Assembly: GCA_017543445.1 (NCBI GenBank)
Contig: JAFYGB010000056.1
Location: forward strand, 1 to 51,576
Source: Lachnospiraceae bacterium
GTDB taxonomy: Bacteria > Bacillota > Clostridia > Lachnospirales > Lachnospiraceae
DNA: 51,576 nucleotides
Direction: 5' to 3'
In this document: piece by piece, positions 17,985 to 30,782 of the stretch
Layout of the letters: every line of letters starts with the position of its first letter
Numbering within the stretch: position 1 is the stretch's first letter
Position numbers and translations under genes: made by a program
The notes under the pieces: model-generated
Database searches by the model: none
Told to the model about the DNA's origin: nothing
Seen by the model: only the letters and a program-made list of their open reading frames with translations

Positions 17985-18431
17985 CACCAAAACTTCATAA
18001 AACGACGATCGCGGTTGCTTTTCCTTCCATCTCGATGCCTATCTACGTCACTGGCGACCACCAGAACTATGAAAAGCAACATGTTTGGTTGCCTCTGCAT
18101 CCCATCCAGAGCCCGTCCAAGTCACTACCAACCACCAGAACAACAAAACGCCCTAGACCTGGTTGCTTTTTCTTCTGCCGGCGAAGCCGGATGCCGATAG
18201 CTACTATCCAATCACGTCTCGGCATGAGAGCGAGCTGATGAAAAACTCCATGAATAAGAAGCCGAACGAGGGGCAAAATCGGTTTCCGAGACCGATTTTG
18301 AGCTAGCTGAGTTCGTTTTCATCAAGAAAACGGACTCAGTCGACGCGGTACCCTCAAGTTCGACTTAGAGGCTTGCGACAGTTTTTTCACCGCGCAACGA
18401 ACTGTCGAGGCGAAATTGCTGTGACTCGCCC

Positions 18432-18601
18432 GTATCCAAGCACCGCGCTGTCGGCGTTTCACGCCTTTACCAGCGCTCCACCATTCGCCGCTCTCGGTCC
18501 GCGTTGCGTCCCTTCACGGCTCATGGTGGGCGTTCGCCAGGTGTCGCAACCCGCTCATGCAAGCATGGCGGTTGCCGACATCTGGCTCACTGCTTGGATA
18601 C
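18432..18601 (-). repeat. Multi-branched structured module, copy 1
   Basis: Closed by a perfect 10-bp stem (GTATCCAAGC/GCTTGGATAC). Inside on the minus strand: an arm GCCAG...TGTCG...GCAACC / GGTTGC...CGACA...CTGGC; a GGCG-AAC-GCC mini-hairpin; an arm CACCAT/ATGGTG (18479-18484 with 18523-18528) containing GCCG/CGGC; and an arm GCGCTG/CAGCGC (18445-18450 with 18471-18476) capped by GGCGT-GAA-ACGCC. Copy 2 at 30539-30701 keeps the same arms with different, still complementary bases. Either strand could act, but the surrounding promoter favours minus. Confidence 0.7.
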
Positions 18602-18602
18602 C

Positions 18603-18638
18603 AAAAGTCCTGTCGTATCTTCCGGGTACGACAGGACT
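18603..18638 (-). terminator. 12-bp hairpin with short U tail downstream of lacI
   Basis: AGTCCTGTCGTA pairs perfectly with TACGACAGGACT around CCCGGAAGA and is followed by TTT on the minus strand. It could end the lacI transcript about 170 bases after its stop. The short U run and position inside the hairpin-rich region leave open that it is simply a domain of the longer RNA. Confidence 0.5.
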
Positions 18639-18752
18639 CATGGTGTAGAGAAAATGTTTGGTTTAGTATCATTAGGAAAATGCACAAGCTATATGCATCT
18701 TGAGTGACCTTTAAGAAAACATCTTAAACGTTTTCGTTCTTGATGTGATTAG

Positions 18753-30506: not shown

Positions 30507-30538
30507 GTAGTACCGCCCTGCATTCATCTTACGATTTT

Positions 30539-30701
30539 ATTACAAGCAGTGAGCCATGTGGCCGCATGCCATGCTCGCATGGCAACGCGGCCATATGGCG
30601 AACGCCCATCATGAGCCGAGAAGCAACGCGAAGCGGGGCGGGATCGGCGAATGATGGAGCGCTGGTAAAGGTGCGTAGCACCGACAGCGCGGGCTTGTAA
30701 T
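30539..30701 (+). repeat. Multi-branched structured module, copy 2
   Basis: Closing stem ATTACAAGC/GCTTGTAAT; arm GCCAT...TGGCCGC / GCGGCCA...ATGGC with inner GCCATGC-TC-GCATGGC; GGCG-AAC-GCC; arm CATCAT/ATGATG (30607-30612 with 30651-30656) containing GCCG/CGGC; arm GCGCTG/CAGCGC (30659-30664 with 30685-30690) capped by GGTGC-GTA-GCACC. Each arm matches copy 1 at 18432-18601, but with compensating substitutions. It fills the gap between the binding protein promoter and the FtsX stop. No promoter for the plus strand is evident here. Confidence 0.7.
30592..30653 (+). repeat. 62-bp direct repeat, unit 1 (within module copy 2)
   Basis: Begins CATATGGCGAACGCCCATC and ends GGATCGGCGAATG. Repeated at 30708-30769 with one difference (A to G in GAGCCGRGAAG). 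It covers the GGCGAACGCC mini-hairpin and the centre of the CATCAT/ATGATG arm. Confidence 0.9.
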
Positions 30702-30707
30702 ACGCGT

Positions 30708-30769
30708 CATATGGCGAACGCCCATCATGAGCCGGGAAGCAACGCGAAGCGGGGCGGGATCGGCGAATG
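30708..30769 (+). repeat. 62-bp direct repeat, unit 2 (partial second module)
   Basis: 61 of 62 bases identical to 30592-30653, displaced by 116 bases. After it the sequence departs from the module (GGTCCGACCGGCG) and reaches the FtsX stop at 30783, so this is a partial module, made by local duplication or left after a deletion. Confidence 0.9.
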
Positions 30770-30782
30770 GTCCGACCGGCGC

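What the first reader, a model, noticed from the sequence alone, without database searches (positions are those of the whole stretch)
18432..18601. Structured module at two loci conserved by compensating base changes
The minus-strand module 18432-18601 and plus-strand module 30539-30701 share order and motifs (AGCAGTGAGCC, GGCGAACGCC, CATGAGCCG, GCGCTGGTAAAGG, CGACAGCGC, GCTTG) but have diverged. At differing positions pairing is preserved: closing stem GTATCCAAGC/GCTTGGATAC versus ATTACAAGC/GCTTGTAAT; GCCAG/CTGGC versus GCCAT/ATGGC; GCAACC/GGTTGC versus TGGCCGC/GCGGCCA; CACCAT/ATGGTG versus CATCAT/ATGATG; GGCGT/ACGCC versus GGTGC/GCACC. This argues for selection on the fold. A simple MITE would be expected to keep its terminal sequence, yet here the outer pairs change together. 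I do not recognise it as a known riboswitch or RNA class.
Basis: partly seen in the sequence, partly recalled or inferred. Interest (0 to 1): 0.85.

Follow-up and report, generated by a model that had tools for sequence, protein, structure and literature searches.

The report
Mobile repeat carrying a folded RNA
The two matching DNA stretches are copies of a catalogued but unexplained RNA family (Clostridiales-1), which in related gut bacteria behaves as a small jumping element and in this genus often sits exactly where genes end.

Summary
In detail: window 18432-18601(-) and 30538-30702(+) fold alike and differ by compensating changes. The class is known: both copies match Rfam RF01699, Clostridiales-1 RNA (54.0 and 70.9 bits, gathering score 48); the fast scan missed them.

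Beyond Rfam: the family is a dispersed repeat, with 8-17 model matches in each of 6 genus genomes. In other genomes of the same family it is the left part of a miniature inverted-repeat transposable element (MITE): inverted ends GATNNNNGNGTCAAAAGGT (141 sites in one genome, 0 in the control), a 3' tail outside the Rfam model, and 7-bp target duplications (exact in 22/45 and 11/30 copies, 4 shared; 2.5% with shuffled flanks). An IS1182-like gene with such ends is the candidate transposase.

In the window's genus the right end is gone (0 of 59; 31 of 45 elsewhere), yet the closing stem persists, and 43 of 61 copies begin at a same-strand stop codon (mirrored control 1 of 61; 5 of 45 in genomes with recent copies). 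The two window copies do not. So this is a transposon family and a conserved fold at once. Present function is inferred.

The parts
18432..18601 (-). Copy A of Clostridiales-1 RNA (RF01699 match 18435-18598), closed by P1 18591-18601 / 18432-18442
30538..30702 (+). Copy B of Clostridiales-1 RNA (RF01699 match 30541-30699)
30538..30547 (+). P1, 5' strand of copy B (pairs with 30693-30702)
30549..30603 (+). P2 hairpin of copy B
30606..30657 (+). P3 hairpin of copy B (CATGAGCCG / CGGCGAATG)
30659..30690 (+). P4 hairpin of copy B (GCGCTGGTAAAGG / CGACAGCGC)
30693..30702 (+). P1, 3' strand of copy B
30704..30771 (+). Direct fragment of a second copy, carrying the P3 hairpin, 98% identical to 30592-30653 over 62 nt

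Best explanation
The two modules are copies of Clostridiales-1 RNA (RF01699). The family spreads as a non-autonomous DNA transposon (MITE): most likely an IS1182-like transposase acting in trans recognises the ends GATNNNNGNGTCAAAAGGT and inserts the element with a 7-bp AT-rich duplication. The element also carries a four-helix RNA fold that is kept by compensating changes, although P3 and P4 are not needed for jumping. In the window's genus the copies no longer have the right end, and no transposase source was found. They persist as fixed elements, most of them placed so that the fold starts at the stop codon of the gene upstream, often with another gene of the same direction behind. The most likely present effect is on the transcript: a stable structure that begins where translation ends, shielding the upstream message from 3' decay and/or setting the level of the next gene. 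Shown: family identity, fold and covariation, ends, target duplications, short duplicated forms, stop-codon placement, loss of the right end. Inferred: which transposase moves it, that it is transcribed, and any effect on expression. The window's own two copies are not at stop codons.
For: RF01699 at both copies. Covariation 19 of 46 pairs in 12 genus copies and 23 of 24 pairs in 40 sequences, score 0.522 against 0.169 shuffled. Near-identical copies at unrelated places in four genomes. End motif 141 times in G043 and 31 times in G115, reversed control 0 in both. Exact 7-bp duplications in 22 of 45 and 11 of 30 copies (4 copies in both sets) against 364 of 14818 with shuffled flanks. Five of 5 short forms examined (69 or 128 bp) have duplications of 7 bp, 8 in one. 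Reversed left end downstream of 31 of 45 and 13 of 30 copies elsewhere, 0 of 59 in this genus, 0 after shuffling. Transposase gene with an exact end 124 bp upstream (L278) and one with an end on each side (L285). Stop codon placement 43 of 61, mirrored 1 of 61. P1 continues into the gene-specific flank: next base pairs at 21 of 22 sites, 11 expected.
Against: The transposase link rests mainly on L278/L284 and L285: L285 has no duplication at its ends and a run of N inside; single ends at L287 and L288 allow 2 mismatches, and on the six loci that loose pattern gives 8 matches against 3 for the reversed pattern. The protein scores 60.7 bits against a 270-bit cut-off for IS1182. 23 of 45 and 19 of 30 copies lack an exact 7-bp duplication in register. 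Ten of 31 genus sites, including both window copies, are not stop-adjacent. In the 40-sequence count slid structures still give 7-14 pairs with changes on both sides. No expression data.
Confidence: 0.62

Rival explanations
1. Pure parasite: a MITE whose hairpins are DNA/RNA folding by-products; it is found at stop codons in this genus only because insertion there does least harm, and the fold is kept because palindromes are corrected or copied arm to arm.
For: Active spread; hairpins lost and gained piecemeal at orthologous sites; BOX elements of pneumococcus also supply stop codons and are judged parasitic by their authors (PMC3049150, passages).
Against: Mere tolerance should also allow insertion behind opposite-strand stops or elsewhere between genes: mirrored placement 1 of 61. 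Four-helix form conserved across 30 genera although dispensable for movement.
Confidence: 0.3
2. A trans-acting small RNA, as Rfam types the family ('Gene; sRNA'); dispersal is incidental and the copies are paralogous genes.
For: Rfam type; conserved unpaired motifs such as GAG/GCGAA in P3.
Against: Copies differ widely in P2 and in number, are reduced or absent at the same site in relatives, and carry transposon ends and duplications.
Confidence: 0.05
3. An RNA that guides its own transposition, like omega or bridge RNAs.
For: A structured RNA on a mobile element; precise placement at stop codons in one genus.
Against: Inverted ends and 7-bp duplications fit a DDE transposase, and the gene found with such ends is DUF772/IS1182-like. 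No match to such RNA families in the Rfam search of the copies. Forms without P3 and P4 have target duplications too.
Confidence: 0.03

Closest known systems
Clostridiales-1 RNA, Rfam RF01699 (Weinberg et al. 2010, PMC2864571; table passage seen)
   Same: Full-length model matches above the gathering score at both window copies; same order of hosts.
   Different: Rfam types it as a gene/sRNA and the 2010 table as probably an RNA, not cis-regulatory; neither passage seen speaks of mobility, the 3' tail, inverted ends, target duplications or stop-codon placement.
BOX elements of Streptococcus pneumoniae (PMC3049150, passages seen)
   Same: Works alike: dispersed, modular, strongly folded element of DNA-transposon type; in 36 of 58 overlaps with annotated genes it supplies the stop codon at the gene's 3' end.
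   Different: Different sequence modules and hosts; homology not tested. Here the 3'-of-gene placement is oriented and within a few bases in 43 of 61 copies, and covariation spans 30 genera.
IS1182-family and related DUF772 transposases (NCBIfam NF033551, Pfam PF05598)
   Same: The gene found behind a matching end in G043 matches both models.
   Different: 60.7 bits against a 270-bit cut-off, so a distant group; the pairing with the element is inferred from end similarity.

Membership tests
Clostridiales-1 RNA (RF01699) | Covariance-model score at or above the gathering score of 48 bits | tested here: met
   A 54.0 bits, B 70.9 bits, both over model positions 1-166
Clostridiales-1 RNA (RF01699) | P1 plus three hairpins kept by covariation | tested here: met
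MITE | Inverted terminal repeats | tested here: not met
   Not met for the window copies and their genus (0 of 59 genus copies have the right end); met in relatives: 31 of 45 and 13 of 30 copies. So the window copies are filed under RF01699, not as intact MITEs.
MITE | Target-site duplication | tested here: not met
   None seen by eye at A or B; met in relatives: 22 of 45 and 11 of 30 with an exact 7-bp repeat in register
MITE | Autonomous relative with the same ends | tested here: inconclusive
   L278/L284 one exact end, L285 both ends with 1-2 mismatches; no movement tested; no IS1182-model match in 6 of 6 genus genomes
IS1182 family | NCBIfam NF033551 score above 270 bits | tested here: not met
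   L278 protein 60.7 bits
BOX elements | boxA-boxB-boxC sequence modules | not tested
   Used as an analogy only

The most novel reading that the evidence does not exclude
In this genus a transposon-borne RNA has been taken over as a stop-codon-anchored mRNA device: its outer stem contains or abuts the stop codon and is matched to each gene's own flank, so it can close only when the terminating ribosome leaves, coupling translation of one gene to the fate of the message and of the next gene. Hairpin modules are gained and lost as interchangeable parts.
Probability: 0.22. Interest if true: 0.8.

Novelty: new variant of a known kind. Interest (0 to 1): 0.55.

Why it matters
A family filed since 2010 as a probable RNA turns out to ride on a mobile element. 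This explains its copy number, warns against reading its presence beside a gene as regulation, and gives a testable pair (element and transposase). The tight stop-codon placement in one genus offers 21 independent sites, several with relatives that lack the element, for asking whether such elements are tolerated parasites or have become mRNA control parts.

Tried and rejected
Rejected: (1) Unknown RNA class: it is RF01699. (2) Guide RNA of an IscB/TnpB-type element: my first guess from memory; no such Rfam family appeared. (3) The ORF between two ends in L264 as transposase: it is a MraW methylase-family gene beside one element and one end remnant. (4) An exact boundary from the empty site at copy A: G001 lacks A, but its flank differs as well. 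(5) Changing outer pairs as an argument against a MITE: see the first-reader verdict. (6) Harmless-place insertion alone: mirrored placement 1 of 61 against 43 of 61; insertion bias and selective retention cannot be told apart here.

Unresolved: the roughly 7-nt spacing between a whole copy and its downstream fragment (read off), and why some fragments carry the same private P2 letters as the neighbour (L016, L047). Whether window-type copies still move: nearly the same P2 occurs with different left flanks in G001-G004.

Results against my reading and rows dropped: the reversed-end test by BLAST was insensitive (14 of 45 even in genomes with ends), so one search replaces it. The loose end pattern (2 mismatches) is near chance for single ends (8 against 3 for the reversed pattern). 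One search used 12 of the window-type places (fragments and places without a fetched locus left out). The 61 genus copies are 57 of the 63 model matches plus A, B, L003 and L004; some are partial or tandem. One search used 47 of the 61 and one copy for each of 22 sites (9 partial or odd-ended copies and A, B, L003, L004, L011 left out). The 30 genus representatives are the tool's best RF01699 matches and lean towards the modelled fold; the structure counted was predicted from the same alignment. In one search copy B shows 2 of 7 end pairs because I trimmed it off register. Searches scored at most 17 and 13 candidates per genome, so their counts are lower bounds. The Fisher value printed used a wrong table; one search gives the corrected one (43 of 61 against 5 of 45, P about 8e-10), which ignores that copies at one site are related.

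Full report
WHAT IS THERE. Copy A is window 18432-18601 on the minus strand; copy B is 30538-30702 on the plus strand. Each folds at -99.2 kcal/mol, far below shuffled sequence (z -8.3; z -10.8), into a closing stem P1 and three hairpins P2, P3 and P4. B is followed by a fragment, 30704-30771, that repeats its P3 hairpin stretch (98% over 62 nt).

A KNOWN FAMILY. A default Rfam scan of the window found nothing. With more permissive filters both copies match RF01699, Clostridiales-1 RNA, over model positions 1-166 and above the gathering score of 48: 54.0 bits for A, 70.9 for B. PMC2864571 lists it as probably an RNA, not cis-regulatory, in Clostridiales and human gut (table passage). 'RF01699' is held by three papers; besides that one, two were seen in the listing only. 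'Clostridiales-1 RNA' gave two papers, seen in the listing, whose titles concern other topics. 'Miniature inverted-repeat' with Lachnospiraceae gave 3 papers, and two of three terms with Clostridiales and 'structured RNA' gave 16, of which 10 were listed; no listed title names this family. Passages of a MITE review show no mention of Clostridi-, Lachnospir- or Rfam (PMC10969869), and a human-microbiome RNA survey none of 'transpos' or 'mobile' (PMC8040213). In these searches I found no report of its mobility; most subscription papers and the 2010 supplement were out of reach.

COVARIATION. Twelve window-type copies from six genomes, picked by DNA similarity, give 19 of 46 pairs with changes on both sides, covariation score 0.207 against 0.083 shuffled, and at most 3 such pairs when the structure is slid. 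Forty sequences, 30 of them from different genera, give 23 of 24 pairs and a score of 0.522 against 0.169; slid versions give 7-14 pairs but scores of at most 0.130. The first seven bases pair with the last seven at all seven positions in 29 of 40 rows and at six in 10, in forms such as TGATACC/GGTATCA, TGATGCC/GGCATCA, TGATTAC/GTAATCA, TGGTTTA/TAAACCA, TAAGCCC/GGGCTTA and AAAAAAC/GTTTTTT (G-U allowed).

A DISPERSED REPEAT. The own genome has 5 places by DNA similarity and 9 others by the Rfam model. The 6 genus genomes have 8-17 model matches each. In the family 83 of 150 genomes match, 64 over the cut-off, with up to 165 first-look candidates of which 17 were scored. In the class 6 of 196 match: 5 of the same family, own genome included, and 1 of the same order. 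An exact pattern in the named collection gave 18 stretches, all titled Lachnospiraceae or uncultured Clostridiales metagenome assemblies, 12 of them from water-buffalo rumen or omasum.

A TRANSPOSON IN OTHER GENERA. In G043, G032, G115 and G114 copies are alike at unrelated places. The mobile unit starts one base inside the Rfam 5' end (GATACC...) and runs some 14-37 nt, 50 in one case, beyond its 3' end, usually to ...ATC, where the 7 bp that precede the element recur. An exact 7-bp repeat in fixed register is present in 22 of 45 copies of these four genomes and in 11 of 30 genus representatives (4 copies are in both sets); with flanks shuffled between copies it is 364 of 14818. The left end and the reversed right end share GATNNNNGNGTCAAAAGGT: 141 sites in G043, 31 in G115, none for the reversed pattern. 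G043 also has 128-bp forms without P3 and 69-bp forms with P2 only; the 5 examined all have duplications of 7 bp, 8 in one. So P3 and P4 are not needed for movement, yet across genera they are kept by covariation. An element with an unrelated interior and similar ends, flanked by ATAATAT, lies in G115 (L276).

A CANDIDATE TRANSPOSASE. One exact end in G043 lies 124 bp before a 444-aa gene with DUF772 and a distant IS1182 match (60.7 bits, cut-off 270). Relatives occur in 5 of 150 family genomes at E 1e-60. Of the six loci, with 2 mismatches allowed, L285 has inverted ends on both sides of the gene (2017 bp), L284, L287 and L288 one end each, L286 a pair that lies before the gene, and L289 none. 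The loose pattern gives 8 matches against 3 for its reverse on these loci, so single loose ends carry little weight. L285 shows no duplication and holds a run of N. The IS1182 model finds nothing in 6 of 6 genus genomes.

THE WINDOW'S GENUS IS DIFFERENT. The reversed left end is found behind 0 of 59 genus copies, 31 of 45 copies in the four genomes and 13 of 30 genus representatives, 0 after shuffling. In 43 of 61 genus copies (21 of 31 independent sites) an open frame of at least 100 codons on the same strand ends -4 to +8 nt from the element; in 14 the element's own TGA is the stop. The mirrored test gives 1 of 61. In the four genomes it is 5 of 45, mirrored 4 of 45. At 14 of the 21 sites the next gene is on the same strand. 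P1 continues into gene-specific flank: at 21 of 22 sites the next base pairs (11 expected), and 0 of 5000 shuffles reach the summed extension of 45. Sequences without the element exist at 7 of 10 distinct sites queried; elsewhere the same site holds reduced copies with P1+P3 (L145, L146), P2 (L142, L143) or P4 (L150) only. Direct fragments lie downstream of 21 of 61 copies and upstream of 1. At site B, G005 has B and the fragment, G003 a whole copy plus a second 5' half, G004 a 5' half, and G002 no recognisable copy; at site A, G003 has a 5' half and G001, G002, G004 and G005 none. Neither window copy is stop-adjacent.

HOW IT MOST LIKELY WORKS. Shown: a DNA-transposon family whose left part encodes a conserved fold. 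Inferred: an IS1182-like transposase mobilises it. Inferred more weakly: in this genus copies have been kept as transcript elements that start at stop codons. The precedent is BOX: in 36 of 58 overlaps with annotated genes the repeat supplies the stop codon at the gene's end, and the authors argue for a parasitic nature (PMC3049150, passages). A purely parasitic reading remains a serious rival.

SECOND REPEAT. Beside A, window 18221-18406 matches another dispersed family. Sixteen further places in the own genome and four stretches of G001 were fetched and found again. Most of these fetched copies fold into one long rod of about 370 nt whose outer stem differs from copy to copy; the window copy does not. 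No Rfam match reached its gathering score in five copies, and in the window stretch none did apart from copy A itself.

Noticed in passing
window 18190-18425 (matched core 18221-18406): A second dispersed family, unrelated in sequence: 16 further places in the own genome plus others in the genus. Most of the fetched copies fold as a rod of about 370 nt with a locus-specific outer stem and ends like TGTGTCAATGGGGACGGTTCC; no Rfam match reached its gathering score in five copies.
   Followed up: partly
window 18600-18644: A strong hairpin (18-nt arms, 89% complementary) abuts the 5' end of copy A and is also present in G001-G004, three of which lack A; A lies directly at its base.
   Followed up: no
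L145, L146, L142, L143, L150 (orthologous sites in genus genomes): Reduced copies that have lost whole hairpins while the stop-codon site is kept: P1+P3, P2 only, or P4 only.
   Followed up: partly
downstream of 21 of 61 genus copies, e.g. L016, L023, L040, L047: Direct fragments of a second copy follow the whole copy, many after about 7 nt, and almost never precede it (1 of 61). Mechanism unknown.
   Followed up: partly
L276 (G115:C18), minus strand, end at 2792: A 162-bp element with similar ends (GATTGAAGCGTCAAAAGGT), a different interior and a 7-bp duplication ATAATAT.
   Followed up: partly
window, Rfam scan: The gathering-mode scan missed both copies although they exceed the cut-off; diverged RF01699 members may be under-annotated.
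   Followed up: yes
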